From Punctularia strigosozonata HHB-11173 SS5 (lineage: Eukaryota > Basidiomycota > Agaricomycetes > Corticiales > Punctulariaceae), in contig NW_006767451.1 in NCBI RefSeq assembly GCF_000264995.1, forward strand, positions 366,502 through 430,501: a DNA stretch of 64,000 bases, in the 5' to 3' direction. Below the pieces are notes generated by a model. The model had not been told where the DNA came from. It was given only the letters and a program-made list of their open reading frames with translations, and did not search any database. This document shows positions 30,821 to 53,771 of this stretch, one piece after another. Positions within the stretch are counted from its first letter, which is position 1; each line of letters starts with the position of its first letter. The translations under genes and the position numbers were made by a program.

Positions 30821-30837
30821 AACGAAATCGAAACCCG

Positions 30838-30952
30838 TCGGACGTACTCCTCGGACTCATCCATTGTATCGTCGGGCTCCTCTCAATCTCAATCCTGGTC
30901 GTCCCAAACCCGCTCCAACACCCCTGGTCTCAGTGGTATAGGTGGTGGATAA
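30838..30952 (+). other. Conserved Ser-rich coding tail (copy 1)
   Basis: Frame ending at the TAA 30950-30952 reads TYSSDSSIV, then SSQSQSWSSQTRSNTPGLSG, then a Gly tail. The duplicated copy at 41624-41737 keeps the same frame and stop with a 6-nt in-frame difference, which argues for coding. Upstream exons could not be found. It is convergent with the kinase gene. Confidence 0.35.
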
Positions 30953-31302
30953 CACGAGTTCCATTACAACATAAGGCATAAAATACATGCAGGGAGCATA
31001 GCATCGTTAAGGAGCGACTGGCATATCCGATTTTGTAGAATATAAAGGTCAAGAATCAGGGGGACTGTCATCAAACCAGTCGTTCGTGTATGCGGCTGAA
31101 GTCGGAAGACGGTGGAAATGAGGAACGGGGAGTGATAGCCCACGAGAAAGCCTTCCGTGTTTGCGGCTTCGTGGATAAAGGAAAGAGAAAAGAGGGAAAG
31201 AGAGACTGTCCAACCTCGATGCGGCCATTCGTGTATGCGGTTTGACACAGAGGAAGATATATTCGACCAGGCCCCGTTCGGCCTGGTATCGATGTTAGCT
31301 CG

Positions 31303-34241
31303 TTAATTCTTCGTCGTCTTGAGCTTCTTGTTCCTCGTGGAGCTCCTCGTCTTCCTCCGCTTGTTGTTGAGCCCATTCGACTCGTCGTCGGAATCCTGCT
31401 GTTCTCCTTGGTCGACTCTCGCAGTCGTGGTGCCTGCTTCATCTCCTCGGCCTCGACCGGCGGTCCTGCGTGCAGATCGGCGAGGCCGGGCAACATGGTT
31501 GCTTGATTCCGCAATGTCGTTCCCGGCATGCGCGTCTACAGCTGGATCATCCTCGCGAACGGTGTCTTGAGCAGGTCCGGCTAGGTCGGGTGAAGTGGAA
31601 TCCTCCTCGACCGCCGCCAACAGCTGCATCTCGACCTCGGCAACGCTGTCCATCACAACAAGGCCCGAGCGGCCAGTGGACGAGAGGGGGATGGGGTTTG
31701 CGCTCGCCTCGCCTGGAGGACCAGCCATCACGGTGTCGTCGCTCCGGGCGCCATTGTCGACTTCAGGAGGGTCACAGTCGAAAACGCGCCAAGCGTACCT
31801 CAAGGCGGCTTCCGGAACATCCGCGCCTGGCCACACCGACGCCATACGAGAAAGGCCGGACCGATAGCCCGCTTCCCGGAGAGCTTGTTCTGCAGCCTGT
31901 CTAGTCGGGAGGACCGGAATGGGAGCCTGTGGAGGTCCGGGTAGCTCGTTCGGATCGGCTACGTCCACGACGATCGCCTCGCTGCGGTAGTTTTCGCAAT
32001 CATGGTCAAGGTGGTGGCCGCCCGTAAGCTGGCCGCGCAGCGTCAAGGGGCCGCGGATCAGCGCCTCCCCTAGGACCTCCACCGTCCCGTTGACTATCAC
32101 CCCGCCAGTCACGACCACGTTGCCATTAATCACCAAGCTGCCGTCGAAATTGACCTCGCCATGGATTTGGGTCGTGCGGATGACCTCTGGAATGTTGCTC
32201 TTACGGGGGCTCCCATCGCCGTTGCCAAGTATAGCGTGCTGAAGTGTGGGCGTCTCAGGAGGCTCCGTCTTTTCGGGCGGGCCAAGGTCATCGGGGCCGG
32301 CAAACTGGGGGATGGCGGTCCTCGCGGCGCTGTAGTTTCCCTTGCTGCCCTTCGTCAAGAAGTTTTGCACAAGAGGATTGTTGAAAGCGAGCGGTTCAAG
32401 TGGTTTAGCTGGAGCCAGGAACGAGTGGTCAGATGCATCCTCAAGGCTGATCCGCTGGTCGTTTTGCGGCTCCAACAGGCGTTTCAACAGTTCGCCTAAT
32501 CGGGACACGAATGAATCAGAAATGGGAGGAGGAGGAGGAGGAGGAGGAAGAGGAGGAGGAGGTGGGAGTTCACTCTCACCTGCATCACCGATCTTTTTCA
32601 TCATTTCCTCAGGTACCTTGTCCATTTGCGGCACTCTGGATAAGATGCGGGTAGGCAGTGGGCTCTTTTTCTTCTCGGAAATTAGCAGGAAAGGGCGCAT
32701 TGCGAACAACCTGTCGGATCAATGAGCCAAAAATCGCGAGAATCTGTGGGCAACGCGCACAAGAAGAACATGATTGCGCCGACGCCGAAGGACTCGCTTT
32801 TCTCGTTGTATACGTGATTCACGATATCAGGAGGTGCCCAGCCAGCGCTGCCTGCGGGCTCCTACAAATTATCCGTTTCAATTCGCTCAGTGCTAGACGA
32901 TCAATATGTACTTACGACATTCCGAGAGGGATCCTTCTTCCTTTGTCTAATAAGGCCGAAGTCGCATATCCTGACTGTAATAGAGCCTGCGTCCTTCCGG
33001 AAGACCAGTATATTCTAGGCGTGCAAGTGCATCAGTCCCACGAAATCGGTTGCGCGAAGGAGATGAGACGAACCGAGGGCTTTATGTCGCCATGCATTAT
33101 ACCCTGGGAATGCATGTACTGCAAGGAATTCTTAGCTCAACATAGCAAACACGATGGACCTAACCTACCAGAAGGCCGTCGATGATCTGGATCAACACCG
33201 AGCGAGCAAGGGGCGGCGCTAGGGGCAGAAATAGCATGTCAGGGGTCTGGAATACATGACTATCGAGGAGTACTGCTCACAGAGTGGTCCTTCGTGCATG
33301 ACGTAATCCTTCAGGGTCCCATAGGGCGCCAGCTCGGAAACCATGTCTGCAAAACAGTCAGCGTACAAACGAGGATACTAGATAAGATTACCTACAAACT
33401 CGGAGAGTTTCCGGGGCCTTGTCGTCGGTTTCAAACCAATAGTCACGCAAGGGAAGGACAGCCGGATGGTCCAGTGCTTCCCAAACGCTTAACTGTAAAG
33501 CCATGTTCTGCAGCTGCCAGGGTTTCACCTTCGTGCGCTTGATGGCAACGGCCAAAGCGTCCTCATCGTTGACGGTTTCACCAAAACGCACCACTGGAGT
33601 AGACGGTCACCGACGAGCTCAGCACAGATAAACAACATGCTCACCTCCTTGCCCTCCTTCCTTGACCATTTCGGACGCGATCTTGTAGCGGGAGGCATGA
33701 GAAGGCGATTCCACGACATCCGTCAGACAACGGAAGATGTACTCTGTCTTGCCGATGTACACGGTGGCGTCACGAGGTAAGTCGTGCCCTTTAAGCGTGA
33801 GGTACTTCTCGTAGACCTGATAGATGATTGTCAAAACGAGAGAAGGTCAACAGCAGTTGTCAGCACGCGCACCTTGATGCCCACGTCATTATGTATCGGT
33901 GTGATGCTGAACGTGATCCCTTCCGGTTTCTCGTGCATGGAAATCGAAGCGATTTTCTCAAGTGGCTCTGCGGTAATAATATGATAACAATGCGATAAGT
34001 CACTTTCCGCAAAAGAAATGTAAAGCTCACCTCGGGCATGCCTATTGGCTTGGACAAGTCCGAGCACGTCGCGACAGATGAACAACGTTGTCGACTTTTT
34101 GTTGAAGACAACATCCGGTTCACCGTCAGTACGCGACTCCAGTAAGCCCCAGTGCGTTCTACGCAGCAACTGATGCTTGATTGCGATATGGCGAGCTGCC
34201 AGCCGAGCGTCCGGCAGCAGTGTTGGAACTCGCTCAGCCAT
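31303..34241 (-). CDS. FHA + Ser/Thr kinase + bactofilin-like beta-helix protein (copy 1)
   Basis: Eleven exons: 34241-34031, 33967-33873, 33816-33645, 33593-33396, 33346-33281, 33218-33169, 33118-33074, 33014-32916, 32861-32755, 32710-32580 and 32495-31303, 788 aa. The N-terminus looks like an FHA domain (HWGLLESRTDGEPDVVFNKK; then NDVGIKVYEKYLTL and ATVYIGKTEYIFRCL). Kinase domain: ALAVAIKRTK (Lys178), YMVSELAPYGTLKDYV, YMHSQGIMHGDIKPSNILVF (Asp275; HGD, so non-RD), RICDFGLIRQRKK (297-299), EPAGSAGWAPPDIV. This FHA-kinase order recalls Chk2/Rad53. Residues about 504-551 form eight hexapeptide repeats (GNVVVT, GGVIVN, GTVEVL) like bactofilin. The tail is acidic then basic (RRSARRTAGRGRG; NKRRKTRSSTRNKKLK), suggesting the nucleus. 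All key residues are present, so it is probably active. Confidence 0.78.
32017..32160 (-). other. Hexapeptide beta-helix repeat region (copy 1)
   Basis: Eight consecutive six-residue units beginning with Gly: GEVNFD, GSLVIN, GNVVVT, GGVIVN, GTVEVL, GEALIR, GPLTLR, GQLTGG. Alternating aliphatic positions fit a beta-solenoid such as bactofilin or hexapeptide folds. Confidence 0.7.
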
Positions 34242-34839
34242 GCTGGCGAAACGCGAGTTTGGGGGGCCGAGACCAAGGAGGCTTGGACCTCAATTTATAC
34301 TCATTTGACAAAGTCCCGTTGAGGCCACTGCTCGACAGTGGCCTTGTAAGATCTCGATGTTGTGGCGAAGACAATTGTCTGGGACTCTGGCCTGGTCCGC
34401 GTTGCACGCCAGAACTCCTTAGCCAGTGATGAGAGAAGAAGAATCAATTGCAAAGCCTCTAAACCATGGTTGCAGCTGTGTCTTTCGCAAGAATCTAGCA
34501 TCGAGGGTGGTATTGTGATGTTGGCGATCGCGAGTTGGTCGTCGTGGTGGCTCCTCTCGATTGAGCCATGTTCGATGATCGCCACGTTGCTGCGCGCCCG
34601 GCAACGCCACTCGCATTGCACAAGCTGCACGCAATTGCCCAGCTCACAGAATGTATCTATATCGTCCTGTTCGTCCAGGGCGACGGCAAGCTGCTCATCA
34701 GGCGGATGCGATGAGGCGGCAAGTTTTCAAGGCGCGTTCGGGAGCTCCTCACGACTGATTACTTGAATTGTAATACTCAAGCCAACCTCTGTCCTATTGA
34801 AAGGATGAGAGGACAATGCCGAGAACCAATTATTGCTAG
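34242..34839. other. Spacer within cassette copy 1
   Basis: 598 bp between the kinase start and the stop of the cysteine-pair gene, both on the minus strand. A minus ORF 34301-34630 has no counterpart with conserved frame in copy 2, so it is not called. Confidence 0.35.
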
Positions 34840-36438
34840 CTATTCGTTGAGCGCGTCATAGTCAATCAAAGCTGTCCAAGGTACAGATGCTCGTCCAGTG
34901 CCGTTGACGATTTTGGGGTCAGCCGTGCTGTCGCTGGGCCTCTCCTCCAATTCCTCGGCAGGTATCCACCTGTAATGGTCAAGAACCAGATACCGCCACT
35001 GTCTTCGCTCCTCATCCCATTCCGCCATCTCATCCTCTGCACGATTTTCATATACAGGGCACCCGTCCTCCTTAGCTGCAGGCAATACAACATCAATGAT
35101 CCAAGGTGGAAAAGTCCGCATGGCCCTGAGAATACAATTCCCGCATCGCCCCGATCCGATGTGCCAGCGCTCCAAATCGACGAGAACGCTGGCAGGTAGG
35201 TGTTGAAATTGGACTGTGAACTGCTGTTTGAACACCCTCGGAGTTCTTGGACGAAGAGGTACTGGGAGGCCAGGAAGGTTGTCCACGAACGCGTCTTCGT
35301 GTCTATGAGCAAGCATATCTTGAACGTCTCTTTCCTTCCTCATAAGGCGCCCGGGATGAAACTCGGGCGTTGACCATGCATCGCTCATATCGTGGAATTG
35401 GAATCCTTGTGCATCCGCGCCGATACGAGGCCTCGGACGCGTAAACGCGGTCTCCTGGATGCGCGACCGTTGATTCGATGTAGGTCGGCACGTACAGCAA
35501 CTCTTGTTCTCCAGCGGATCCGCGTCAATCAACGCGTCAAGTACAGGGCGGAGAGTGTCGTCTGCTGCGCGCTTCCCGCTGCCATTGGCTCGCGCTTGTT
35601 TGAGTGCAGCAAGGACAGTCTGCAGGTCCGTACCCGTGACGCTGCTCGCCGGTTCGGCAAGCGATGTGACGTTGTCGTTCACGAGGGTTCTGTTCAAGGC
35701 ATCGTAAGTCCATGCGCGGCAGAGAACACGGAACGTAGGACGCACGGATGAGTTTGAACCCCACGACATTGGCGAGTGCTCCTGTCCTGCGAGGATGATA
35801 CTCGTCGCGCGTCGAGCGTCTCGACGCCTTGCATCAGATTCTGCACGCCCTCCGTAGCGCGCGCTATCGCTGTTTCTGTTTTCGTCAGAAGCTTGTGAAC
35901 CACGCTAGCTTCGTGTCGCATCTTCTTCAGCTCATTCGCAGCGCGCACGGCTTGCCTAACTCTACGAGATTGCTGCCGCGAGCTGCCCGTCACAGCATCG
36001 TCGCTCGTGCGACGACATTTGGAACTGCGTTCCTCAGGATCAGGAGATGTGGGTCGTTTGGCGGAATGTCGAGGGCGGGGAGGGACGTCATCGTCGGGAA
36101 CTTCTTTTCGCGGGCGAGGAGGAGCTTTGGCTTTACGAGTTGCGTGAGCCGATTGAGGGAGTGCAGCGAAAGCTCGAGGGTTGGCTTCGCGGCGACGGCG
36201 GAGATTGTATATCGGTTCCGTACTACCTGTGAGGTCGACAATGAACGGGCATGCATGGTTATAACGAGAAGAATTTGCGCGTACCGGATGCAACTTGCGA
36301 GGTCATGTTTCCCAAATAATTCGCAGCATCATGCCACCCAATAAATGTAGATGCTGTACGTTCTGCCGAGCGCGCAGTGCGCTTGGTCAATTTGGGAGTG
36401 CTAGATCCCAACGGATAGTTCTGAGCTGGTCGTTTCAT
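34840..36438 (-). CDS. Unknown nuclear-looking protein with Cys pairs (copy 1)
   Basis: Three exons: 36438-36285, 36226-35746 and 35689-34840, 494 aa. I do not recognise the family. The start at 36438 (MKRPAQ) was chosen because copy 2 has MKRRAQ and the N-terminus aligns from there. Parts: basic Pro-rich region with possible nuclear signals (KRPTSPDPEERSSKCRRTS), an amphipathic helix (AANELKKMRHEASVVHKLLT), then a conserved half with CCTCRPTSNQR and RCGNCILRAMRTFPPW, which could bind metal, and FKQQFTVQFQHLPASV, CPVYENRAEDEMAEWDEERR and VLDHYRWIPAEELEERPSD near the end. It sits about 600 bp upstream of the FHA-kinase on the same strand, and the pair is duplicated together. That hints at a shared role but does not prove it. 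Confidence 0.7.
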
Positions 36439-37446
36439 GTCTCGTCCGTTCCTTGTCGGGTTGTTCGCCCCAGTTTAAGAAGATACAGTTCTCACTACAG
36501 CTCAGGTACTCAGAGAATATTAGCGGTAACAAGTTTCAATGGATGAAACAAGCCTTTTGTTGCGTATCCGGTCGACTTGACGCTGCTCGCAGCTCAACGA
36601 GCTCCTTTGCCGGGCCGGTTTGGTCCCACGTGACACTGTGGACTCGTGGGCGCGCGACGCGACGCGACGCACTTGCTAGTCTACGCTAGCCTGCCATCGT
36701 CGATGTCTACGGTTTCCTTCGTGAATAGTTCTGCAGGACTACATCGTACGTCTCTCTGGGGAGGGAGAACGAGTTTCGTTATCGGAGCCGCAGCTGATGG
36801 AATACAAGTATTGATTGCACTGGTACACCTTCGCATTGTCCGACATTGTGACCTCGACTCGACCAAGCTCGACTGAGCGCCTTGCTCGACCGTGACAAAA
36901 GAGCACAATACACACAATTGAAACTCACATGACAAGGCACTATTTCTATACTGTTCTCTCGATACGCCAAGAAGACGCAGCTCGTAGACTTGTTCAACGC
37001 AAGCTGCAGTAGGCTCAGACAGCAGATGATCGCGAAAGCTAGTTTTGTTTCCACTCATCTCATCGGCTTTGCCGAGTGCGAATGTGTAGCCTCGTGGCCT
37101 TCAAGAAGGGAACAACATCCGCCCTTCTCATTGGCTCCTCGTCTCCGGTTCTACTTGGGCGGCTGCTGGTGGACCGTGCCAATGTTTCATCGTTGCTGAA
37201 ATTTCCGGCCATCTCACGGAGCTGAAGACTCCATACATAGACGCTTCATGATCGAGACGACATTCCGAATGCAAGCTCAACGTATGCGCGATGGAAGGCG
37301 ACACCACTGAAACCGGTGTGAGACTTTCCCTTGTTAGTGCCGTCGATTTCAAAATCCCTCCTGTACTATAGTATTAGATGACTGCTGATATGAAAACGAT
37401 GGTAGGGTGTGATCCTATTCGCGATTCACCTTTCCGGGCTCCTCGC
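36439..37446. other. Intergenic region
   Basis: About 1 kb. The first 430 bp resemble 47155-47620 (for instance GGATGAAACAAGCC), so this is the upstream region of the duplicated cassette. The rest shows no gene. Confidence 0.4.
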
Positions 37447-39963
<2,517 letters not shown>

Positions 39964-40179
39964 NNNNNNNNNNNNNNNNNNNNNNNNNNNNNNNNNNNNN
40001 NNNNNNNNNNNNNNNNNNNNNNNNNNNNNNNNNNNNNNNNNNNNNNNNNNNNNNNNNNNNNNNNNNNNNNNNNNNNNNNNNNNNNNNNNNNNNNNNNNNN
40101 NNNNNNNNNNNNNNNNNNNNNNNNNNNNNNNNNNNNNNNNNNNNNNNNNNNNNNNNNNNNNNNNNNNNNNNNNNNNNNN
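39964..40179. other. Assembly gap (216 N)
   Basis: Run of N. Sequence across it is unknown, and the order of the flanks depends on the assembler. Confidence 1.
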
Positions 40180-40425: not shown

Positions 40426-40560
40426 GAGCTTGTGCAGTAGGTAAACTCCGCCGAAGCCGGCACCAACAATGAGCACATCGACCTCCAGATGATCCACATA
40501 GCTGTCGGCATGTTCATCCCTCGGCGGCTGTTCCGAACCGATGTCTCTGCGGAATGGCAT
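40426..40560 (-). pseudogene. Truncated 5' end of the Baeyer-Villiger monooxygenase
   Basis: The first 45 codons ([11 protein letters not shown] to VYLLHKL) are identical to those at 39231-39097, then the sequence changes abruptly. It cannot encode an enzyme. It is either a real partial duplication or a product of a failed contig overlap beside the gap; I favour the latter. Confidence 0.8.
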
Positions 40561-41292
40561 AACTCTAGAGTGAAATGCGCTGCAAATTGCGCGACGAAGC
40601 GATAATACTAAGTGACTCGGTGCAGCTTTCGGGAGCGAACGAGTGGCCTCAAGTGGGGCAGTCTCGACTCATATATACGCGTGGTGACCTTCTCGATGTG
40701 CTTCCCCAGCATGAGGTCCATCTCCCGCTTACACGTAGGCCGCCTTCTTCCAATGCGATGATCACCCACTTCTGTGTGGGCCGTGACGGGCTTGAGAATG
40801 CATGCCGGTACGACAAGTAGCCTATCCCCCAGGAGAACATATCTGAACTATAAGTACATCCAAGATCTTGTTCGCGAAGCACGGACGTACAACTTCGGAA
40901 AGACGCTCTCACTTCCGTGAGTACCTCGCGGTGGCGAAGTTGCCGTTCGGCGCGAATGACACATTCTGATGTTACCCAGCGGATACATGATGCTTTCGGT
41001 GGTGCGCGCCCTCGCCTTCCTCATCTTCGTGGCGATGGGTCGAACATCGCACGACCCGGCCGACGGGTTCTTGAGCTCCTTTATACATGCAGAGCTCGCT
41101 CACTCCCTTTTCCTAGGCGCAGCGAACCCATGTCGGCGGAAGGAGAGAATGGTCAGGCATGTTTTTGCGTATCACCTGTGAGATGGTCGGTGACTGGATA
41201 CGGAGCATAAATATAATGAGTGTACCTTCCACAGAAATGTTGAAGCGTCATGCGCCGGAGTCCGGACGACAGCTCATAGTCATACGTTTGAG
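40426..41292. repeat. 867-bp identical direct repeat, copy 2
   Basis: Second copy of 39097-39963. It ends where unique sequence resumes (after CATACGTTTGAG). Confidence 0.9.
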
Positions 41293-41597: not shown

Positions 41598-41623
41598 ATC
41601 GAAACCCATTGGACGCGTCGAGG

Positions 41624-41737
41624 TACTCATCGAACTCATCGATTGCATTGTCGGACTCCTCTCAGTCTCAATCCTGGTCGTCCCAAACCCGCCCCAACGG
41701 CAACATGCCCGGTCTCAGTTGTGTAGGTGGTGGATAA
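41624..41737 (+). other. Conserved Ser-rich coding tail (copy 2)
   Basis: Frame ends at the TAA 41735-41737: RYSSNSSIALSD, then SSQSQSWSSQTRPNGNMPGL, then a Gly tail. It keeps the frame of 30838-30952. Confidence 0.35.
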
Positions 41738-42097
41738 CACGAGTTTCATTACAACATAAGGCATAAAATACATGCAGGGAGCATAGCATCATCAAGGAGC
41801 GACTGGCAGGCGTACATCCGTGTATCCGATTTTGTAGAATATAGAAGTCAAGAATCAGGGGGACTGTCATCAAACCAGTCGTTCGTGTATGCGGCTGAAG
41901 TCGGAAGACGGTGGAAATAAGGAACGGGGAGTGATAGCCCACGAGAAAGCCTTCCGTGTTTGCGGCTTCGTGGATAAAGGAAAGAGAAAAGAGGGAAAGA
42001 GACTGTCCAACCTCGATGCGGCCATTCGTGTATGCGGCTTGACACAGAGGAAGATATATTCGATCAGGCCCTGTTCGGCCTGAATCGATGTAACACG

Positions 42098-45055
42098 TCA
42101 ATTCTTCGTCGTCTTGAGCTTCTTGTTCCTGGTGGAGCTCCTCGTCTTCCTCCGCTTGTTGTTGAGCCCATTCGACTCGTCGTCGGAATCCTGCTGTTCT
42201 CCTTGGTCGACTCTCGCACTCGTGGTGCCTGCTTCATCTCCTCGGCCTTGACCGGCGGTCCTCCGTGCAGATCGGCGAGGCCGGATAGCATGGTTGCTTG
42301 ATTCTGCGATTTCGTTCCGGGCATACGCGTCCACAGCTGCACCACCCTCGCGTTCGGTGCCTTGCGAAGGTCCGGCCAGGTCGGGGGAACTGGCATCATC
42401 ACCTACTGCCGCCGAAAGCCGCATCTCCACCTCAGCAACGTTATCCATCGCAAGAAGATCGGCGCCGCTGGTGGACGAGCGCGGGATAGGGTTTGCACTC
42501 GCTTCTCCTGGAGCACCAGCCATCACGGTGTCATCGCTCCGAGCGTCATCGTCGACCTCAGGAAAACCATAGTCGGCATCCGGAACCTCCGTGCCTGGCC
42601 AAACCGACGCCATAAGCGAAAGGCCGGATCGGTAGCCCTGAGTTGCAGCCCGTCTCTCCGGGGCAAACGGGACGGGAGTCTGTGACGGCTCCGGCAGCTC
42701 GTCCGGATCGATCGACTCGTCATGGCTGTCGGAGTTGCTGGCTTCATCTTCCGCGTTCGTCTCGCTGCGGTAATTTTCGCAATCGTGGTCGAGAGGATGC
42801 AGGCCCATGAGCTGGCCGTGCACCGTGAAGGGGCCGCGAACCTTCGCCTCTCCTAGGACTTCCACCGCCCCGATGACTACCACCTTGCCAGTGACGACCA
42901 CGTTACCATGAACCACCAGGTTGCCATCGAGCTCGACGTCGCCACGGATCTCGTTCACGCCGGTGCTCCCAACCTCAGAAACGGTGCTGGCTAGCTCACG
43001 GGGGCTCCGAACCAGATTGCCGAGTACACCGGGCTGACGTCTAGGCGTCTCGGGAGGCTCCGTCGTTGCGGGAGGCCCAAGGTCGTTAACGCCGATAAAC
43101 TCGGGTATCGGGGTCCCAGCGGCGCTGTAGTTTCCCTTGCCGTCCTTGTTCGAAAGGAAGTTCTGCACGAGAGGGTTGTTGAAAGCGAGTAGTTCGAACG
43201 GTCTAGTGGGAACCAGGAACGGATGGTCGGAAGCGTCCTCCAGGCTGATCCGCTTGCAGTTTTGCGGCTCCATCAGGCGTTTTAATAGATCTTGGCCTAC
43301 GAATCACCAATAAATCAGAAGTTGGAGGAGGAGGAGGCGGAAGTCCAGTTTTACCGGCATCACCAATGTCTTTCATCATTTCCGGAGTGACCTGGTCTAT
43401 CTGTGGCACTCGGGTTGAGATGCGGGTGGGCAGTGGGCTCCGTTTTTTCTCTCGAAGCAGCAGGAAGGGGCGCATTGCGAACAACCTGCCATAACAATGA
43501 GATACAGGATCGCCAGAACTTGTGAACAGCACGCACAAGAAGAACATGATCGCGCCAACGCCGAAGGACTCGCTCTTCTCGTTGTACACGTGATTCAAAA
43601 TATCAGGAGGGGCCCAGCCAGCGCTGCCGGCGGGTTCCTACAAATGACTCAATTCAGACTGGCTCGCTGCGAGGTGAGCGATGTGTACTTACAACATCCA
43701 AAAAGGGATCCCTCTTCCTTTGCTTAACAAGGCCGAAATCACAGATCTTGACTGCAATGGAGTCTGCGTCCTTGTGGAAGACAAGCACATTCTGGTTGCG
43801 GTGCATCAGCGCCGCGAGGTCGGTGTTGGGAAAGAGACGGGACGAACGGAGGGCTTCAAATCACAATGCATTATACCCTGGGAATGCATATACTGCAACA
43901 ATTCTGAGCTGAGCAAAGCATACACGATCGACTCAACTCACGAGGAGGCCGTCAATGATCTGAGTCAGCACCAAACGAGCGAGGGCCGGGGCTGCGGGAA
44001 ATAACGATGTCACGGGTCTGGAGTGCATGGTTCATAAGGATTATTGCTCACAGAGAGGTCCTTCGTTTTGTATGCAATCTTCTAGGGTGCCAAAGGCTGC
44101 GAGCGCGGAGACCGTGTCTTGTGGGACAGTCAGCGCATGTTCACAGCAATAGACTTCGTACCATTACTCACAGACTTCGACGACATCGGGTTTACTGTCG
44201 TCGGTCTCAATCCACCAGTCATGCAAGCGAAGGATCGCGGGATGATCCAGCGATTCCCAGATGCTCAGCTCCAATGCTATGTTCTGCAACTGTCGATATT
44301 GCACATCCATGCGCTTGATAGCGACAGCGTATTCGCGCTGGTTGCCAACGGTTTTCCCGAATTGGACGACTAAGTGCGGAGTTCATTAACGAGCCTCGTC
44401 CTAATGATAGGCGACGCTCACCTCCTTGTCCGCCTGCCTTCGCTAATCCGTGCCTAATCTGGTAGCGAGAAGCATGAGAGGGAGGTTCATCAACATCCGT
44501 TAAGGAACGGAAGATGTACTCTGTACCAGCTGGATAAGCCGACTTGGAGGTGAGTCACAATGAGGTACGGACCTGTCTTGCCAATGTACACAGTGGAGTC
44601 GCGGGGCAAGGTGTACTCTTCGGGCTTGAGGAATTCATCGTTCACCTGATAGAAGATCGTGAGATAGAGGAAACCGATCGCAGTAACGGTGGCGCACCTT
44701 GATCCCATAGAGGTCATTGGCCGGCGTGATCTTGAATGTCTCCGTCCCCTGGTCCCCCTGCTTGGAAATAGTGACGATGGTTTGGAATGACTCTGTAGTA
44801 GTGAGTGATCAGATGCATTTCGTGCGAGATCATGTACTACTCACCTGGGACATCATTGCTGGCTCGAACGAGTCCAGCCGTGTCGCGGCAGACCAGCCAA
44901 GTTGACGATGACTTGTTGAAGATGACGTCTGGTTCTCCGTTGGTGCGAGACTCTAGTAGTCCCCAGTGGGTCCTGTGTAGCAACTGGTGCTTGATTGCGA
45001 TATGTCGGGCAGCAAGCCTGGCGTCCGCCAGCAGGGTTGGGACGCGTTCAGCCAT
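42098..45055 (-). CDS. FHA + Ser/Thr kinase + bactofilin-like beta-helix protein (copy 2)
   Basis: Twelve exons: 45055-44845, 44792-44698, 44645-44573, 44520-44422, 44369-44172, 44117-44052, 43991-43942, 43892-43848, 43791-43693, 43637-43531, 43485-43355 and 43296-42098, 790 aa. FHA-like part: HWGLLESRTNGEPDVIFNKS, then LYGIKVNDEFLKPEEYTLPR and TVYIGKTEYIFRSL, a clear FHA-style end. Kinase: EYAVAIKRMD, HCDLKPSNVLVF, KICDFGLVKQRKR, GWAPPDIL-type activation segment. Catalytic Asp kept, preceded by Cys (HCD, non-RD). Residues about 510-557 hold the hexapeptide helix (GNLVVH, GNVVVT, GKVVVI, GAVEVL). The basic tail ends like copy 1. Compared with copy 1 it has one extra intron (44572-44521) and a GC donor after 43531. 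No break was found. Confidence 0.75.
42800..42943 (-). other. Hexapeptide beta-helix repeat region (copy 2)
   Basis: Eight units: GDVELD, GNLVVH, GNVVVT, GKVVVI, GAVEVL, GEAKVR, GPFTVH, GQLMGL. The Gly spacing is preserved relative to copy 1 despite many substitutions. Confidence 0.7.
44521..44572 (-). other. Intron present only in kinase copy 2
   Basis: 52-nt intron, GTCCGTACC to GGTACAG. Copy 1 reads straight across the same place (GGCAAGACAGAGTACATC). The length is not a multiple of three, so removal is required to keep the frame. Confidence 0.75.
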
Positions 45056-45545
45056 GCAGGTGCGAGTGCGAGTTTGGTGGGGTGAGACCAAGGAGGCAAC
45101 CTCCTTCAGATTTATATCTGTTTGACAAAGTCGCCCCAGGTCCACTCATGGACGGTGGCCTTGCAAGAATTCGTTGTTGTTACGAGGACAATTGTCTGCG
45201 ACTTTGGCGTCGGTCGGAGTTACGCTGAAGAAGTTTTGCAAGGCCAAGAGTGTGAAAAGATACACTGGCAAGGCCACGACCATGATTAAGCTGAGTCTCA
45301 TATCGCGCAGGGGAAGAAATAATCGAAGGTAGTTGTGCGTTGTAGCACAACGGTGGCCGGCTGCGCGTGACGGCCATATTTGGTAATGGCCCAAATCGGA
45401 TCGATGTGGCGTTGCACGAGCGGGGGCACAGACATCAACTTGCTCGAGGGCAAATAATGCGCGATCACTCTGATACGTGTTGACTTCTTAATTGATCCGG
45501 TCCCGAAAGGACGGGTGGAGGTTTGCCGGCAATCACGATTAATGG
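45056..45545. other. Spacer within cassette copy 2
   Basis: 490 bp between the kinase start and the stop of the cysteine-pair gene. No conserved ORF. Confidence 0.35.
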
Positions 45546-47154
45546 TTATTCATTGAGGGCATCGTAGTCAATCAAAGCGTCCCAAGGTATAGATGCATGT
45601 GCTGTCCCATTGACAACTTCAGGATCTGCCGCACTGTCGCTGGGTCTCTCCTCAAGTTCTTCAACGGGTATCCAACGGTAATGATCTAGGATCAGATGAC
45701 GCCACTGTCTTCGCTCCTCATCCCATTCGGCCACCTCAGCCTTTGCTCGGTTCTCATATACGGGACATCCGTCCTCCGCAACTGCCGGCCATTCAACCTC
45801 AATAATCCAAGGAGGGAACGTCCGCATCGCCCTCATTATACAATTTCCGCAGCGGCCCAGTTCGACATGCCAACGCTCCATCTCGGCGAGAACGCCGGGG
45901 GGTAAATGTTGGAATTGGACGGTGAACTGTTGCTTGAACACCCTTGGAGCCCTTGGTCGTGGTCGTACCGATAGCCCAGGTAAAGAATCCATGAACGGAT
46001 CTGGTCGACCCAAAGCGAGCATTTTTTCGACGTTTCGTTCCTTACTCGTAAGGCGGTCCGGATGAGGGTCGGACATTGAACATGCGCTGCGGTCGTCGTA
46101 TGGGAACCCTTGTGCGTCCGCGCCGATGCGAGGCCTCGGTTTCGAGAACTTCGTTTCCTCGATGCGCCGTCGTTGACTGGCTGTAGGTCGACATGTACAG
46201 CATGTCGTGTTTTCTCGGGGGTCGGCGTCAATCAGCGCATCGAGTACAGAGCGAAGAACGCCATCCATTGAACGCTTATCAGTGTCCTTGTTTTCATCAA
46301 CTCGCGCTTTTATCAGCGCAACGAGGGCGGCCTGAAGGTCGGAGGTCTTTTCTGCGTCTGTGCCGCTTCTCGGGACGGATGGCAGGGACGCCGTCTCGTG
46401 GGCGGGTGTTCTATCGTGAGCATAATGAGCACACGCAGGACAAGAGTCGCAGTTTGTCAAACGTACGAATGAATCGGGACCGCAGTACTCTGGCGAGTAC
46501 GGTTGGCCCGCGAGGATGCCGTACGGCGTGCGTCGAGCATATCAACGTCGTGCACCATGTTCTTCACACTTTCCGAGGCGCGTGCTATCGCTTGTTCCGT
46601 CTTCGTTACAAGCTCGTGAACCCCATTGGCTTCGCGCAGCAGCTTCCTCAGCTCGCCCGTAGCTCGTTTGGCTTTTTTCACCCAACGTGATGGCTGCTGC
46701 GAGCTGCCCGCTTCTACGTCATCGCTGGTGCGACGACGCTTGGGAACCCGTCCTTCTGGAGCGGGAGGCATGGGTCGTTTGGTGGAACGTCGAGGACGAG
46801 GGAGGACCTCATCTTCGAGAACTTCATGTCGTGGGTGGGGAGCTTCGGGTTTACGGGGTTTAGGAGGTGGGGGGCACGGTTTGGATGGTGCAGTAGAAGC
46901 TCGAGGGTACGCTTCGCGACCGCGGCGGAGGTTGTATACTGGTTCCTTACTACCTACGAGGTCGGCGATCACGGAACGTCCATAATTATAAGATGGATTG
47001 GGCGCGTACCGGATGCAGCCCGCGACGTCGCCTCTCCAAGCTGGCTTGCGACACCGTGCCAGTTAAATGCTAGCCGATTTGTGGAGCGCGCAATACTCCT
47101 GGTTACTTTGGGAGCGCTAGTTTCCGGCGAAGGGTGCTGGGCTCGCCGCTTCAT
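45546..47154 (-). CDS. Unknown nuclear-looking protein with Cys pairs (copy 2)
   Basis: Three exons: 47154-47010, 46953-46467 and 46410-45546, 498 aa, with the same intron positions and phases as copy 1. N-terminus MKRRAQHPSPETSAPKVTRS; possible nuclear signal EGRVPKRRRTSDD; helix RATGELRKLLREANGVHEL; Cys pairs TCCTCRPTASQRRR and RCGNCIMRAMRTFPPW; C-terminal half VFKQQFTVQFQHLPPGVL, CPVYENRAKAEVAEWDEERR and RWIPVEELEERPSD. The C-terminal half is much better conserved between copies than the first half, so it is likely the functional domain. Two upstream in-frame ATGs (47205, 47187) exist. 47154 is preferred because copy 1 starts there. A copia-type element begins about 470 bp upstream. Confidence 0.7.
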
Positions 47155-47622
47155 GCTTCGTTCGTTCCCTGTCGGGTTGGGGGCCATTTGTGCGGAGAAA
47201 ATCAAAGATCCAGTTCAAAAAGATATAATTCTCAGCTCAGCCTCAGCAAGATGAAACGAGCAAGTTTCGATGGATGAAACAAGCCTTTTTGTTGCGTATC
47301 CGGTCGACTTGACGCTGCTTCAACGAGCTCCTTTTCTGGCCTGTTTGGTCCCACGTGACACGGTGGACGTGGGCGCCTCGAGCCCGCGACGCGACGCAAC
47401 GCGACTCACAAGCTGCCCTACTAGTACTAGCGACGTCTACATTTCCATTTGGGAAGAGTTCTACAGGACTACATCGTAGAACTTCTGGGAGGTATAATGA
47501 GTTACGACATTTGCACTTCAGTTGATGAAACACAAATATTGACCATACCGGTACAACTTCGCATCGTCCGACAATTTAATTACGTCGACCACGCCGAAAT
47601 AGGACACGACACACGATCAAGT
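47155..47622. promoter_or_regulatory. Upstream region of cassette copy 2
   Basis: Similar to 36439-36870. Conserved blocks include GTATCCGGTCGACTTGACGC and TTTGGTCCCACGTGACAC (contains CACGTG). It is cut by the copia-type insertion. Confidence 0.45.
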
Positions 47623-47627
47623 CTTCA

Positions 47628-47894
47628 TGTTGAACTAGGCTCTACACAGCCTTGGTCACATGCGACACAGCATGGCTGTTCTCACAGCCTTCCACATCAT
47701 TGGACAGCGTAGCCATCTGCACTGGTATGATAGCGTACAGCCCTGCATAGCCACTCCTTTGTAGTATATAAGAGCAGGCCTGTCGGCCCCTAATGATAAC
47801 TCGCTTCCTATCAGCAGTCCCCACCAGTAAGCTCTACAAGCTCACCAGGTCAGTCCCAGCCGCGTGCCACTGCGTGCACTAGCGCTGTCCAATA
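47628..47894 (+). repeat. 5' LTR of the copia element
   Basis: 267 bp, begins TGTTGAACTAGG and ends GCTGTCCAATA. It contains a TATA-like GTATATAAGAGC about halfway. Confidence 0.95.
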
Positions 47895-48195
47895 GGTTAT
47901 GAGCCCTGTCAGGCGCTGGGGAGCGCACTCTGCTGCTGCACCCTGTGCGACTGACAGACTGGCCTGAGCGCCGTCGTTATCGACGTGCTGCTATGGTGGT
48001 CATTGCGCACTGCTGCTGCCCTAGGCGCGCGGTTGCTGCATGGCGCACTGCTGCTGCCTATGGCGCGCAGTTGCTGCCTAGGGCGCGCTTCGGCGCTGCC
48101 CAGAGGGGTCTCAGCGCCATGGACGGCTGCTTGCACATTGTCGCTGACATTTTAGCTGACTCTGTTGCCTCACCAGACCTCTCATCGTTCTCGCA

Positions 48196-51100
48196 ATGTC
48201 CTCGTCCAAAGGATCCTCTGTTGTCGACCTCGTCCCCATCTTCAATGGCACCAACTTCGTCATGTGGGAGCAGAGCATGAAGGCTTATCTCATGCAGCAG
48301 GGGCTCTGGCATATCATCAATGATGCTCGCCCCGATACCCCAGCCTCCGGCGATGAGGAAGCCGTGAAGATAGCCAAGGAGGACCGCCAGCGGTCCTATG
48401 ACGAGAAGAGCGACAAGGCCCTTGGCTCCATCCTCCTGCGCGTCTCCGAAAGCATCCGCCAAACGCTGAAGGACCAAGACGAGCCTGACAAAGTCCTGGA
48501 CCTCCTTCGCCGCAACTACGGCCAGCAGCGTGTCGGCAACGCATACTCCGACTTCGTCTCTATGCAGCGGGTTCAGATCCCAGACGACAAATCCCCCGTG
48601 CCAGCGCTTAACGAGCTGCAGGCCTGTTGGGACCGTCTTCAGCAGATCAAGGTCCGCCCTTCCACGGGTAAATCCTCGGACCCATCCACCGAATCCCTGC
48701 CGAAGTGGCTCTTTGGTATGATGCTTCTGTCGAAGCTCCCGAAGAACCTGGAGGTGGTTCGCCAGAACCATGCGAATACCGACCCTGCGCAGATCGACCC
48801 AGAGACGATCAGGACGGCCGTCATTAGCGCCTGGGAGTCTAACTCTCTGCGCAAGAGGAGCCAGCCACCTGATGCCAAGCGCATCACTGCCATCAAAAAG
48901 AAGAATGGCGATAAACCCTTCGACGCCCAGCTGAAGAATAACCGTGACAATAACTCCGGTTCCAGCGGCTCGAACCAGCAATCCTCCGGGTCCAACAACA
49001 AGAAGCGAGGGAAGCGCGGTGGTAACAAAAAGAAGAACCACTCGCAGCACACCCATATCGCTGATGTTGACTCTGAGGATGGGATGCACGTCATCGCATC
49101 GGGAGTCTCGCATATCGCGAGCGTCGCCTCTGTCCCTACTCCTGGAGTACCTGGTCCTACCGACATGCGCATGCATCGCCCCGTCGTCAAGTCTAGCGGC
49201 AAGCCCTCCGTCTACCGCGATGTACAGGCCGGCTTTGAGATCGCTCACGCTCTTGGTATCCCTACCACGAGCAATACGCTCCGCAACATCGAGCTCGATT
49301 TCAACGCCGCCAAGTCATCGCTGCCGCCTCCCTCACAGGAGGAGTGGCATGCCTACTTAGAGGAACGCGCCGACTTCCGTCTGCAAACCTATGGCAATGC
49401 GTTTAGCGACGACGACGACGTGGACGACTTCTACCCCCCTATTAAGAAGATGCGCCTAGAAGATCGGATTTCTGAGGGCTCGAGCGACTCCTTCATGCAA
49501 AGCATAGGGAGTGCCGAAGTAGCGGACACGACCGGAGCGCCGACCTTAACGGGTCAGGCTGCCGAAGGTTCTTCCTCTGAGCAGGACATCGCGGCTCCCA
49601 TCCCAGTTGGCTGCCAATCGCTGCTCGACATCTTCGCCGACAGCGATGTGGACATGGTCTCTACCGGTCACGTCGAGATCGACGACCTGTTCCCCTTTGG
49701 CGACCAGTTTGTGGAGGATGCGAGCGCGCTCCCTGAGCCTGCGCACTGGGCCGACCGCCCTTGGGCTGATGACGGGTATGTCCCTCTCACCCACATGTCA
49801 GCGTTACATGATGCTAACGTGCTCTTCTGCGCCTTGCGCAATTTAGACGCATGTAAATACTATATCGCATCGAACCCCTGTTGTAACGACCGTAATGACA
49901 TGTACCCTCACGGGCTTACTTATGCTGCATGTGCGCATTGTAAGGGGAAGAGAAAGCAAGGGACGAATCCTAAGCTTGAGGAGATCCGGCGAACTTGGAT
50001 GCTCGACTCCGGTGCTTCATTGCATATAACGGGTAACATGGACGACTTCCTCGATTTTGAAAAGTTCAAACCCTCGGAGCGCATACCTACCCTAACCGCA
50101 AATGGTGTCGTCTTCATTGAAGGACGCGGTACCTCGGTACTCCGTTACAATGACATTTGGAACGGACCATCGGTTGTTCGCATCGGACCGGTCTACTACC
50201 TGCCAGGGCTCCTAGGACCGCTCATCTCAATGGGCACCTTCTTGAAGCAAGGAATGAAGGTCCGAGGCGATGCTGACCACATCACCCTGACTGAGAACGA
50301 TAAACCCTTCATGGCATTTCCAGTTAGACGTCCCGGAGATACGGTCTACGCCATCAAGACGTTAAATCCTACCGTCGGTTTCATTGGTGTTGCAAACTCT
50401 GTTGACCACGGAGTCATGCACCGTCGCTTTGCCCATGCTGGGCGCGATGCTCTTCGCCATGCTCGGGATCATACCCTTGATTTCCCTGAGATTGAGTTCC
50501 CTAAAAAGGATCCTCTTTGCCGTGGATGTGCGCAGGGCAAGATGCCCTTGCGGCCGTTCCCTGAGAACCCACGTCGCGCAAATAAGCCCTTTGAGCTCAT
50601 CCATTCGGACTTGAAGTCTTTCCCTGTGGAGTCGTACCACAAATTCAAGTATGCAATCATCATGCTTGACGACTACACCTCCTATGCCTGGATTGTTTGT
50701 CTGCGCTCGAAAGATGCTGCGACTACGGCCATTAAGCAGTTCATTGCAATGGTCAAAAACCAGCATAGTGCCACCGTCAAACACTGGATGTCTGACTTCG
50801 GCGGGGAATACAAGTCAAAAGCTCTCAGCGACTATCTGCGTTCTCAAGGCATTGAGATTCATGAGAGTGCTCCGCACACGCCACAACAAAACGGTCGTGC
50901 TGAACGCTTTATGCGCACTTTCATGGATAAGGCTGAAGCCATGCGGCATGACGCCTGCATCCCTCAATCTTGGTGGGAATTCGCCATCGAACATGCGTGC
51001 CATGTTTACAACAGAACACCCCTGAGGCGCCATCAATGGGCGACTCCGCATGAGAAACTACTTGGAGAAGCTCCTTCGGTGAAGCATCTTCGAGTATTCG

Positions 51101-53466
51101 GCTGCGGTGCCTATGTACACATCCCAACCGACGTTCGCGCAAATAAACTTGCTGCAAAGTCGGAGTTAATGACTTATATTGGGGTGCATCCTGGCAATAT
51201 CGCAAATTTTCGCTTTATGCGATCGCCGAACAATGTGGTTTTCACTAGCGCTCATGCTCTGTTCGATGAGGGTTTATTCCCTAAGTGCGAAAAGACCGAG
51301 AAACGACGTGTTACGGATAGGTTGCCTACGGCACCACCAACCGACCCACACGATCAACCTCTTCCTTTGCCGGAATTGAGCGATGATGATGAGCTGCCAC
51401 CGGCAGCTCCTCCCAAACCACCTTCCTCAAAGGGTAAGGGCAAAGCGCGTGACGACGCGCCGGAGCAGCATAATGCGCCCAGCCCGACACCGCCTGAACG
51501 CGCTTCGGGAGAACCTGACGCACCGCAAGGGGGAGCGGAGCAGCCAGAGGCGCCTGCACCACCTGGTCCGCGTCGTTCTACGCGCGAAAGGAGAGTTACT
51601 CGTCGAGAGGGTAATATCTATGGCGAATCACGACCGCCTGTAGATCAATATCGGGATATTGAGCGACGGAGCAATTGGGAAAAGACAGTTGGAATCCGCT
51701 CGGGTCGCGACCGAGCAGAACCACATCGTCGAGATGAACAGGTTCCCGGACCTAGTTCTGACCAACCCAGCTCCAGCGAACGTCGCCAACCTGAGCCCAC
51801 CGATAACGGCGAGTCCAAACTGGCAAAACTATGCCGGGAAGGGGGAGTCCGTTGCATCGAAATGCTGCTTAATTGCGCAATTCCACCATTTGATGCTCAT
51901 CCCGCCGATTCCAACGTTCGAGAATGGACGTATCGTGACATACAGCGACTTCCACCCGCTGAGCAAAAGGAATGGAGGGCTGCATGCGAAGATGAGCTAA
52001 CTATGCTCCGCAAGCGCCGAGTTTTCGAACTTGTTGATCGCCCAAGTGACCGAAAAGTCATAAAGAACCGTTGGGTCTTCGACGTCAAAACTGACGGTCG
52101 AAAGAAAGCTAGGCTTGTTGCCAAAGGCTTCTCCCAGATAGAAGGCGTTGACTTCGACCAAGTCTTCTCTCCTGTCGTCCGATTCGAGTCAGTGCGACTT
52201 ATACTCGCACTTGCTGCACTGGAAGGGTGGTATATCACCGCTCTCGATGTGCGCAGCGCCTACCTCTATGGCAAACTCGATGAAGAAATCTACATGGAGC
52301 AGCCTGAAGGTTTCGTTGAACCTGGCTCGCGCGGAAAAGTATACCGGCTACTCCGCGCACTATACGGACTAAAGCAAGCGGGATTAGCGTGGTGGCGCAC
52401 CCTTGACAAGTCCATGTCAAAGCTCGGCTTTACACGCTTGAGATCTGACGCCGGTATCTTCGTCATGAAACGTGATGGAGAAACAATTGTCGCCGTCGTC
52501 TATGTCGACGACTCATTCTTCTGCGGAAGGAACAAACCCTTTGTGGACAAGGTCAAGGCCGAGTTCATGAAGATCTGGGAATGCCGCGATCTTGGACCCT
52601 TGTCTGAGTTTCTGCGCATGCGCATCACCAGAGATGGCAGCACAATAAAGATTGATCAATGCGCCTACCTGGAGAAAGTGCTTGAGCGCTTTGATATGCA
52701 GAATGCAAAACCTGCGCAAACCCCTCTCCCAGATGGTTTCCATCCACTTCCTAACCCAGACGCGGTCAATATAGACCTGCGACACCGGTACCAGCAAGTC
52801 ATTGGGTCACTCATGTACTTGATGATTGGTACGAGACCTGACATCGCCTTTGCCGTCACTCAAATGGCTCGTCATGCTGCCAACCCGTCCCAAGAGCACC
52901 TTGATAAAGCGCTGTATATCTGCCGCTATCTCGCTGGGACGCGGACGTACTCTATTGTGTACGATGGCGCAGACAGAATGGGCTTCTCGGCATACACAGA
53001 CTCTGACTGGGCCTCTGACCCTATCACTCGTCGGTCTCAAACCGGTTATTTCACCAAGTTGGCCAAAGGCATATTCTCTTGGCAGTCTTCATTGCAGAAG
53101 ACAACCGCTCTCTCTAGCACTGAGGCGGAGTACATGGCGCTCTCTGATTGTAGCCGCCAAATCACCTGGATTGTTAGCCTGATGCGAGAGCTCGGTTATA
53201 ATCTAGGGCCAATTGAGATTGCTGGTGACAATGAAGGATCCTTGCATCTTGCAGGAAATCCTGTCACGGAAAAGCGGTCAAAACACATCGACATCCGCTA
53301 CCATTTCATCCGTGACCGCATAGACGACAACACTGTGCGCGTTGTTCACATCGATGGGCAAGACAACCCAGCCGACATGCTCACGAAAAATCTGGGACAT
53401 GTGAAGTTCCTCAAGTTCCGACCGTTCCTAGGAATGGTATTCCCCACGGCTGCGAAGCGCGCCTAG
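48196..53466 (+). CDS. Copia gag-pol polyprotein (element-borne)
   Basis: One frame of 1756 codons. Domains in family order: a Gag-like N-terminal part, aspartic protease, integrase with its zinc-binding HHCC region and catalytic core, reverse transcriptase with YVDD, and RNase H. The order protease-integrase-RT-RNase H defines Ty1/copia. The element looks whole. Confidence 0.95.
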   Translation: MSSSKGSSVVDLVPIFNGTNFVMWEQSMKAYLMQQGLWHIINDARPDTPASGDEEAVKIAKEDRQRSYDEKSDKALGSILLRVSESIRQTLKDQDEPDKVLDLLRRNYGQQRVGNAYSDFVSMQRVQIPDDKSPVPALNELQACWDRLQQIKVRPSTGKSSDPSTESLPKWLFGMMLLSKLPKNLEVVRQNHANTDPAQIDPETIRTAVISAWESNSLRKRSQPPDAKRITAIKKKNGDKPFDAQLKNNRDNNSGSSGSNQQSSGSNNKKRGKRGGNKKKNHSQHTHIADVDSEDGMHVIASGVSHIASVASVPTPGVPGPTDMRMHRPVVKSSGKPSVYRDVQAGFEIAHALGIPTTSNTLRNIELDFNAAKSSLPPPSQEEWHAYLEERADFRLQTYGNAFSDDDDVDDFYPPIKKMRLEDRISEGSSDSFMQSIGSAEVADTTGAPTLTGQAAEGSSSEQDIAAPIPVGCQSLLDIFADSDVDMVSTGHVEIDDLFPFGDQFVEDASALPEPAHWADRPWADDGYVPLTHMSALHDANVLFCALRNLDACKYYIASNPCCNDRNDMYPHGLTYAACAHCKGKRKQGTNPKLEEIRRTWMLDSGASLHITGNMDDFLDFEKFKPSERIPTLTANGVVFIEGRGTSVLRYNDIWNGPSVVRIGPVYYLPGLLGPLISMGTFLKQGMKVRGDADHITLTENDKPFMAFPVRRPGDTVYAIKTLNPTVGFIGVANSVDHGVMHRRFAHAGRDALRHARDHTLDFPEIEFPKKDPLCRGCAQGKMPLRPFPENPRRANKPFELIHSDLKSFPVESYHKFKYAIIMLDDYTSYAWIVCLRSKDAATTAIKQFIAMVKNQHSATVKHWMSDFGGEYKSKALSDYLRSQGIEIHESAPHTPQQNGRAERFMRTFMDKAEAMRHDACIPQSWWEFAIEHACHVYNRTPLRRHQWATPHEKLLGEAPSVKHLRVFGCGAYVHIPTDVRANKLAAKSELMTYIGVHPGNIANFRFMRSPNNVVFTSAHALFDEGLFPKCEKTEKRRVTDRLPTAPPTDPHDQPLPLPELSDDDELPPAAPPKPPSSKGKGKARDDAPEQHNAPSPTPPERASGEPDAPQGGAEQPEAPAPPGPRRSTRERRVTRREGNIYGESRPPVDQYRDIERRSNWEKTVGIRSGRDRAEPHRRDEQVPGPSSDQPSSSERRQPEPTDNGESKLAKLCREGGVRCIEMLLNCAIPPFDAHPADSNVREWTYRDIQRLPPAEQKEWRAACEDELTMLRKRRVFELVDRPSDRKVIKNRWVFDVKTDGRKKARLVAKGFSQIEGVDFDQVFSPVVRFESVRLILALAALEGWYITALDVRSAYLYGKLDEEIYMEQPEGFVEPGSRGKVYRLLRALYGLKQAGLAWWRTLDKSMSKLGFTRLRSDAGIFVMKRDGETIVAVVYVDDSFFCGRNKPFVDKVKAEFMKIWECRDLGPLSEFLRMRITRDGSTIKIDQCAYLEKVLERFDMQNAKPAQTPLPDGFHPLPNPDAVNIDLRHRYQQVIGSLMYLMIGTRPDIAFAVTQMARHAANPSQEHLDKALYICRYLAGTRTYSIVYDGADRMGFSAYTDSDWASDPITRRSQTGYFTKLAKGIFSWQSSLQKTTALSSTEAEYMALSDCSRQITWIVSLMRELGYNLGPIEIAGDNEGSLHLAGNPVTEKRSKHIDIRYHFIRDRIDDNTVRVVHIDGQDNPADMLTKNLGHVKFLKFRPFLGMVFPTAAKRA

Positions 53467-53504
53467 AATGCTTGCGACCCTTACGGGCACTTAGCAAGGG
53501 GGAG

Positions 53505-53771
53505 TGTTGAACTAGGCTCTACACAGCCTTGGTCACATGCGACACAGCATGGCTGTTCTCACAGCCTTCCACATCATTGGACAGCGTAGCCATCTGCACT
53601 GGTATGATAGCGTACAGCCCTGCATAGCCACTCCTTTGTAGTATATAAGAGCAGGCCTGTCGGCCCCTAATGATAACTCGCTTCCTATCAGCAGTCCCCA
53701 CCAGTAAGCTCTACAAGCTCACCAGGTCAGTCCCAGCCGCGTGCCACTGCGTGCACTAGCGCTGTCCAATA
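53505..53771 (+). repeat. 3' LTR of the copia element
   Basis: Same 267 bp as the 5' LTR, with no difference noticed by eye. Confidence 0.95.

What the first reader, a model, noticed from the sequence alone, without database searches (positions are those of the whole stretch)
31303..34241. FHA domain, protein kinase and bactofilin-like beta-helix in one protein
Seen: an FHA-like N-terminus (GIKVY...YIGKTEYIFR), a kinase with all catalytic residues, and eight G-x-V-x-V-x hexapeptides in the C-terminal half, followed by an NLS-rich tail. FHA plus kinase is known from Chk2/Rad53. A self-polymerising bactofilin-type solenoid attached to such a kinase is not an architecture I know. Inference: the helix could cluster the kinase into a filament or scaffold that is switched by phospho-peptide binding.
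Basis: partly seen in the sequence, partly recalled or inferred. Interest (0 to 1): 0.78.

Follow-up and report, generated by a model that had tools for sequence, protein, structure and literature searches.

The report
Fungal kinase with short beta-solenoid tail
A duplicated fungal gene encodes a protein kinase with a degenerate phosphopeptide-binding-like front end and a short stack of beta-strands at the back that probably lets copies stick together; it resembles known DNA-damage kinases with an unusual extra part, but it is not shown to be a bactofilin filament kinase.

Summary
The gene is real: 11 exons, minus strand, 786 aa (K1). An intact paralogue, K2 (45055..42098, 788 aa, 70% identical), about 8 kb away keeps the architecture. 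Kinase: certain (E 6e-35 and 8.5e-39), but in K1 the alpha-C Glu is Gln193, and in both copies HRD and APE are altered. FHA: no Pfam hit in K1 or full-length K2, a sub-threshold one in the K2 N-terminus (E 0.21); profile comparison supports the C-terminal half only (0 of 200 shuffles; the other half 108 of 200). Beta-solenoid: seven consecutive G-x-h-x-h-x units in both copies, at most three in 20,000 shuffles each, modelled as beta strands. Bactofilin: below cutoff, and five of five pattern-keeping shuffles score nearly as well, so the match reflects the pattern, not shown ancestry. With about 2.5 coils against six repeats in bactofilins, I favour a dimerisation or docking module on a nuclear, Chk2-like kinase over a filament; this mechanism is inference. 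Fungal relatives could not be searched.

The parts
34031..34241 (-). K1 exon 1 (residues 1-70); residues 1-45 are the most constrained part (dN/dS 0.02)
   Evidence: gene model, dN/dS
33730..34151 (-). FHA-like region, residues ~31-131 (with introns); only the C-terminal half (res ~87-130) is supported by profile comparison
32416..33660 (-). protein kinase domain, residues 155-416 (with introns); K178, Q193 (alpha-C), HGDIKPSN 273-280, DFG 297-299, APPD 321-324
   Evidence: Pfam PF00069 E 6.1e-35; motifs
32496..32579 (-). intron 10, holding the GGA/TCC run that reads as poly-proline in the raw frame
31303..32495 (-). K1 exon 11 (residues 390-786): kinase end, linker, solenoid, tail, stop
32017..32160 (-). 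beta-solenoid: seven G-x-h-x-h-x units (residues 502-543, to 32035) plus a partial eighth (544-549)
   Evidence: AlphaFold
31306..31491 (-). basic NLS-like tail, residues 725-786
   Evidence: sequence; near-identical in K2 but dS only 0.09 over residues 701-786
42098..45055 (-). paralogue K2, 12 exons, 788 aa, same architecture, 542 of 772 aligned residues identical
42818..42943 (-). K2 beta-solenoid, seven hexapeptide units (residues 508-549)
34843..36302 (-). upstream neighbour reading frames, co-duplicated with the kinase (copy at 45549-47062); no Pfam family at E<=0.1

Best explanation
A divergent serine/threonine kinase of a basidiomycete-like fungus, built like Chk2/Rad53 (FHA-like region in front of a kinase) with an added C-terminal short beta-solenoid and a basic tail. 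Shown: a gene model conserved between two copies, the kinase domain, the hexapeptide run, an intact duplicate. Predicted: the run folds as a beta-solenoid of about 2.5 coils of 18 residues. Inferred: the solenoid's open edges stack with a second copy (or cap on a partner), holding kinases together so that they can phosphorylate each other or shared targets; the basic tail takes the protein to the nucleus; the FHA-like region contributes docking, perhaps with weakened phosphopeptide binding. With only two SQ/TQ sites in K1 and no cluster, the phospho-SCD/FHA pairing that dimerises Chk2 is not apparent, and the solenoid may do that job instead.
For: Kinase E 6.1e-35 / 8.5e-39; the closest solved kinases are CDPK/CaMK-type and PLK4. 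Seven hexapeptide units in both copies, at most three in 2 x 20,000 shuffles. Over the seven units all 5 differences at positions 3 and 5 stay hydrophobic and no repeat Gly changed, while 4 of 10 differences at positions 2/4/6 change class. AlphaFold: beta strands, block-mean pLDDT 79-85 over model residues 21-70, pTM 0.61. FHA C-terminal half 0 of 200 shuffles. Overall dN/dS 0.30. Chk2 has FHA, kinase and a C-terminal NLS in that order and dimerises through phospho-SCD and FHA (PMC4296918, passages). SQ/TQ sites: 2 in K1, 5 in K2.
Against: Solenoid dN/dS is 0.94 (bootstrap 0.41-2.59), so selection on it is not demonstrated; 5 of 5 hydrophobic-keeping changes has a neutral chance of about 0.67^5 = 0.13. 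Foldseek finds nothing at E<=0.001. The solenoid model rests on two sequences, and only the best of five AlphaFold models is well scored (75.3 against 61.8-55.0; 46.2 against 34.8-26.0 for the whole exon). Full-length K2 lists no FHA, the N-terminal half of the FHA fails the profile test, and the margin over the best shuffle is small for residues 28-135 (21.1 against 20.88); K1 alone gives P 0.083. K1 has Gln at the alpha-C Glu position, so it may be weakly active or inactive. Oligomerisation and nuclear location are inferences.
Confidence: 0.45

Rival explanations
1. One reading: a true bactofilin domain fused to an FHA-kinase that polymerises into a kinase filament or scaffold.
For: PF04519 is the best non-kinase Pfam match of both full proteins and the best match of both segments (E 7e-4 and 7e-3 on segments). 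T. thermophilus bactofilin is the top Foldseek hit of both models.
Against: All scores are below the Pfam cutoff; 5 of 5 pattern-preserving shuffles also hit PF04519 at 15.6-19.3 bits, three of them above the real K2 segment's 16.9; NCBIfam gives YdcK, phage P2 V, LpxD, MinC and others; none of the 12 weak sequence matches among solved structures is a bactofilin; only about 2.5 coils.
Confidence: 0.1
2. The solenoid is a docking or capping module that binds another protein (as the MinC C-terminal beta-helix binds both itself and MinD) and directs the kinase to a partner rather than self-associating.
For: MinC_C is the second Pfam match of the K1 segment (E 0.045; in K2 it is third, E 0.59). 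MinC-C uses one face for its homodimer and the other for MinD (PMC6771821, passages). Positions 2/4/6 differ most between K1 and K2 (10 of 15 differences).
Against: No partner known; the MinC match is below cutoff, as the bactofilin one is.
Confidence: 0.25
3. The pair is a fast-evolving, lineage-specific kinase duplicate under relaxed constraint, with K1 drifting to a pseudokinase and the FHA and solenoid as decaying relics.
For: Alpha-C Glu to Gln in K1, HRD to HGD/HCD, APE to APP; FHA-like region 50% identical with dN/dS 0.42; solenoid dN/dS 0.94. Lineage-specific kinase expansions are known in Agaricomycetes (PMC3937382, passages).
Against: Both frames are intact over more than 780 codons; kinase dN/dS 0.23, N-terminus 0.02; the Lys, HxD, Asn and DFG residues are kept in both.
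Confidence: 0.2

Closest known systems
Chk2 / Rad53 / Cds1 / Mek1 FHA-kinases
   Same: FHA(-like) region N-terminal to a CAMK-like Ser/Thr kinase, basic C-terminal tail (Chk2 order and NLS from PMC4296918 passages; Rad53/Cds1/Mek1 recalled)
   Different: No SQ/TQ cluster; FHA degenerate; HRD Arg absent; added beta-solenoid. No Chk2-family name among the 60 best of 2059 PDB matches shown or the 23.
Bactofilins (PF04519)
   Same: Gly-hydrophobic hexapeptide pattern; predicted beta-solenoid; top but weak HMM and Foldseek match
   Different: About 2.5 coils instead of six 16-18-residue repeats (PMC4372379, passages); score below cutoff and reproduced by pattern-keeping shuffles
MinC C-terminal beta-helix
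   Same: Short beta-helix used to dimerise and to bind a partner (PMC6771821, passages); weak Pfam match
   Different: No MinD partner known here; bacterial division context; match below cutoff
Agaricomycete lineage-specific kinase families (FslK)
   Same: Duplicated kinases in a fungal genome of probably the same class (PMC3937382, passages)
   Different: FslK are tyrosine-kinase-related and a search of that paper's main text found no mention of FHA; K1/K2 match CDPK/CaMK-type kinases best

Membership tests
Protein kinase (PF00069) | family profile above cutoff | tested here: met
   121.3 and 134 bits against cutoff 31.7
Protein kinase (PF00069) | complete catalytic set (beta3 Lys, alpha-C Glu, HRD Asp, Asn, DFG Asp) | tested here: not met
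   K1: Glu replaced by Gln193, the other four present; K2 has all five
FHA domain (PF00498) | profile match above cutoff | tested here: not met
   K1 none at E<=10; full-length K2 none; K2 N-terminal pieces 12.5 and 12.4 bits against 20.7
FHA domain (PF00498) | C-terminal half (NG...L..GD.I.iG) alignable beyond chance | tested here: met
   P 0.0011, HHalign probability 20%, 0 of 200 column shuffles as good
FHA domain (PF00498) | phosphate-binding GR and SxxH motifs in the N-terminal half | tested here: not met
   108 of 200 shuffles score as well for residues 22-80; by eye CRD in both, ANRH (K1) and SND (K2); motifs recalled
Bactofilin (PF04519) | profile match above cutoff | tested here: not met
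   16.0 and 11.5 bits on whole proteins, 20.2 and 16.9 on segments, against 27.9
Bactofilin (PF04519) | similarity beyond the shared hexapeptide pattern | tested here: not met
   5 of 5 pattern-preserving shuffles hit at 15.6-19.3 bits, 0 of 5 full shuffles do
Bactofilin (PF04519) | about six solenoid repeats | tested here: not met
   seven hexapeptides, i.e. about 2.5 coils (six repeats from PMC4372379)
Bactofilin (PF04519) | nucleotide-independent polymerisation | not testable with these tools
   needs purified protein
Chk2/Rad53 family | kinase domain branches with Chk2/Rad53 | not tested
   no fungal or Chk2 set at hand; PDB lists show CDPK, CaMK and PLK4 first
Chk2/Rad53 family | SQ/TQ cluster domain | tested here: not met
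   2 SQ/TQ sites in K1, 5 in K2, none before the FHA region

The most novel reading that the evidence does not exclude
A fungal FHA-kinase lineage has replaced phospho-dependent dimerisation by a built-in beta-solenoid that stacks end to end, making an obligate kinase oligomer in the nucleus, in two diverged copies of which one (K1, alpha-C Gln) may act as a regulatory pseudokinase partner of the other.
Probability: 0.15. Interest if true: 0.7.

Novelty: new variant of a known kind. Interest (0 to 1): 0.4.

Why it matters
If the solenoid oligomerises the kinase, it would be a natural example of a structural, polymer-like module wired onto a Chk2-like kinase, and a route to kinase clustering without a phospho-switch. 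None of the nine answered full-text searches listed a paper whose title or abstract start describes it; I read passages of six papers only, the library lacks most subscription journals and no fungal genomes could be searched, so the fusion may be common in related fungi.

Tried and rejected
Own genome: not held. Relatives: last exon, full pair alignment and neighbour frame in viral contigs, solenoid alignment in genome contigs: 0 confirmed relatives in each of four scans. PDB sequence search of the FHA region: none at E<=10 for K1 alone and one unrelated hit for the pair (E 1.2); of the solenoid pair: 12 hits, best E 0.034, none a bactofilin; of the K1 C-terminal part (351 aa): two hits, both above E 1. 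Bactofilin homology: not upheld after the shuffle control. Poly-proline stretch in the raw reading frame: rejected, intron 10. A DNA-level 18-bp repeat origin of the hexapeptides: not seen. NCBIfam for the K2 N-terminus: none. PMC5041073 was searched for FHA residue numbers and gave no passage.

Full report
What is there. The reading frames on the minus strand between 34241 and 31303 splice into one 786-aa protein (K1) with 10 introns of 49-84 nt, all GT..AG. The strongest support for the model is a second, intact gene in the same window, K2 (45055..42098, 788 aa, 11 introns), found by comparing the window with itself and modelled in turn. All ten K1 introns have a K2 counterpart at the same coding position (exon lengths), and the two proteins share 542 of 772 aligned residues. 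Aligned intron bases are 68% identical (362 of 530) and overall dN/dS is 0.30, so both copies appear to have been held as coding genes. The duplication also carried the upstream neighbour (34841-36845 and 45547-47573), whose four frames match no Pfam family at E<=0.1.

Host. Short introns and, among the ten frames scanned, an OPT transporter, two F-box-like proteins and a Copia element fit a basidiomycete, probably an agaricomycete. This is inference, since the genome is not held and no fungal collection is available.

Kinase. Residues 155-416 match PF00069 at E 6.1e-35 (K1) and 8.5e-39 (K2). The best-scoring solved kinases are CDPK1-like enzymes, then PLK4, CaMK1 and DAPK. Lys178, Asp275, Asn280 and the DFG Asp are present in both copies, but the alpha-C Glu is Gln in K1 and Glu in K2, the HRD Arg is Gly or Cys, and APE is APP.

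FHA. Pfam finds no FHA in K1 and none in full-length K2; two N-terminal pieces of K2 give a sub-threshold match (12.5 and 12.4 bits, E 0.21 and 0.22). I built an FHA profile from 14 plasmid-borne bacterial domains (14 of 75 matching records, chosen by me for diversity) and compared it with the K1/K2 pair. The pair aligns in register with the C-terminal half of the domain (P 0.0028 for residues 20-145, HHalign probability 11%; 0 of 200 column shuffles as good; nine other segments of the protein score 8-13 against 21.5; the reversed sequence 15.8). Residues 80-135 alone give P 0.0011 (probability 20%) and 0 of 200; residues 22-80 give nothing (108 of 200 shuffles as good). K2 alone carries the signal (P 0.0023); K1 alone is weak (P 0.083). 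I read this as a divergent FHA whose binding half is degenerate or too diverged to recognise. The FHA-like region is the least identical segment tested between the copies (45 of 90), whereas the first 45 residues are 91% identical with dN/dS 0.02.

Solenoid. Seven consecutive G-x-h-x-h-x units (residues 502-543) are present in both copies; 20,000 shuffles of each protein never gave more than three. AlphaFold without an alignment leaves most of the last exon unmodelled (mean pLDDT 46) but gives residues about 491-550 block means of 66-81. With the two-sequence alignment it gives alternating long and short strands at an 18-residue period, block-mean pLDDT 79-85 over model residues 21-70, pTM 0.61; the other four of its five models score lower (55.0-61.8 against 75.3). 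Between the copies no repeat Gly changed and all five changes at positions 3 and 5 stay hydrophobic, but the neutral chance of that is about 0.13 and the segment's dN/dS is 0.94 with a wide interval, so selection on it is not proven. Low dS there and in the tail (0.25 and 0.09 against 0.5-2.0 elsewhere) hints at gene conversion.

Is it a bactofilin? PF04519 is the best non-kinase match but below cutoff in every test. The control shows how to read it: five shuffles that kept the hexapeptide pattern but scrambled residues within each pattern position still hit PF04519 at 15.6-19.3 bits (real segments 20.2 and 16.9), and five full shuffles did not hit it. NCBIfam returns other families, several of them hexapeptide or beta-helix proteins. 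Foldseek ranks T. thermophilus bactofilin first for both models, but with E 0.49 and 0.17. Bactofilins are reported to have six repeats of 16-18 residues (PMC4372379, passages); here there are about 2.5. I therefore call it a short beta-solenoid of bactofilin-like pattern, not a bactofilin. A passage of another paper says bactofilins have been described in eukaryotic stramenopiles (PMC9448923), so a eukaryotic one would not be without precedent.

Mechanism. Chk2 has FHA, kinase and C-terminal NLS in the same order and is dimerised by FHA binding to a phosphorylated SQ/TQ cluster (PMC4296918, passages). K1 has two SQ/TQ sites and K2 five, none in front of the FHA-like region. The open edges of a short beta-helix are natural association surfaces; the MinC C-terminal beta-helix dimerises with one face and binds MinD with the other (PMC6771821, passages). 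The most economical reading is a nuclear kinase kept as a dimer, or tethered to a partner, by its solenoid. Oligomerisation, nuclear location and substrate are inferences.

Verdict. The combination is present twice, which makes it more than a curiosity of one exon model. The dramatic part, a self-polymerising bactofilin kinase filament, is not supported by the tests available.

Noticed in passing
30833-36845 and 41613-47573: Segmental duplication carrying the kinase and its upstream neighbour in the same order (74% and 70% nt identity).
   Followed up: yes
44521-44572: K2 has a 52-nt intron inside the stretch that is one exon (exon 3) in K1: an intron gain or loss between paralogues; the intron ends ...ACAG, as does the exon before it.
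   Followed up: partly
34843-36302 and 45549-47062: Co-duplicated upstream reading frames without a Pfam family; 205 of 325 aligned residues identical in the larger frame, most conserved towards the C-terminal end.
   Followed up: partly
47628-53771: Copia-like LTR retrotransposon with a 1768-aa open frame and two 267-bp LTRs that are 100% identical, so probably recently inserted.
   Followed up: partly
39097-39963 and 40426-41292: Exact 867-bp direct repeat flanking a run of N (39964-40179): probably an assembly-gap artefact.
   Followed up: no
9616-10855 and 60924-62127: Inverted pair of 68% identical stretches, a further duplicated locus.
   Followed up: no
31306-31563 and the K2 tail: Kinase tails (residues 701-786) nearly identical with dS 0.09 against 0.5-2.0 in most of the gene: likely gene conversion at the 3' end.
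   Followed up: partly
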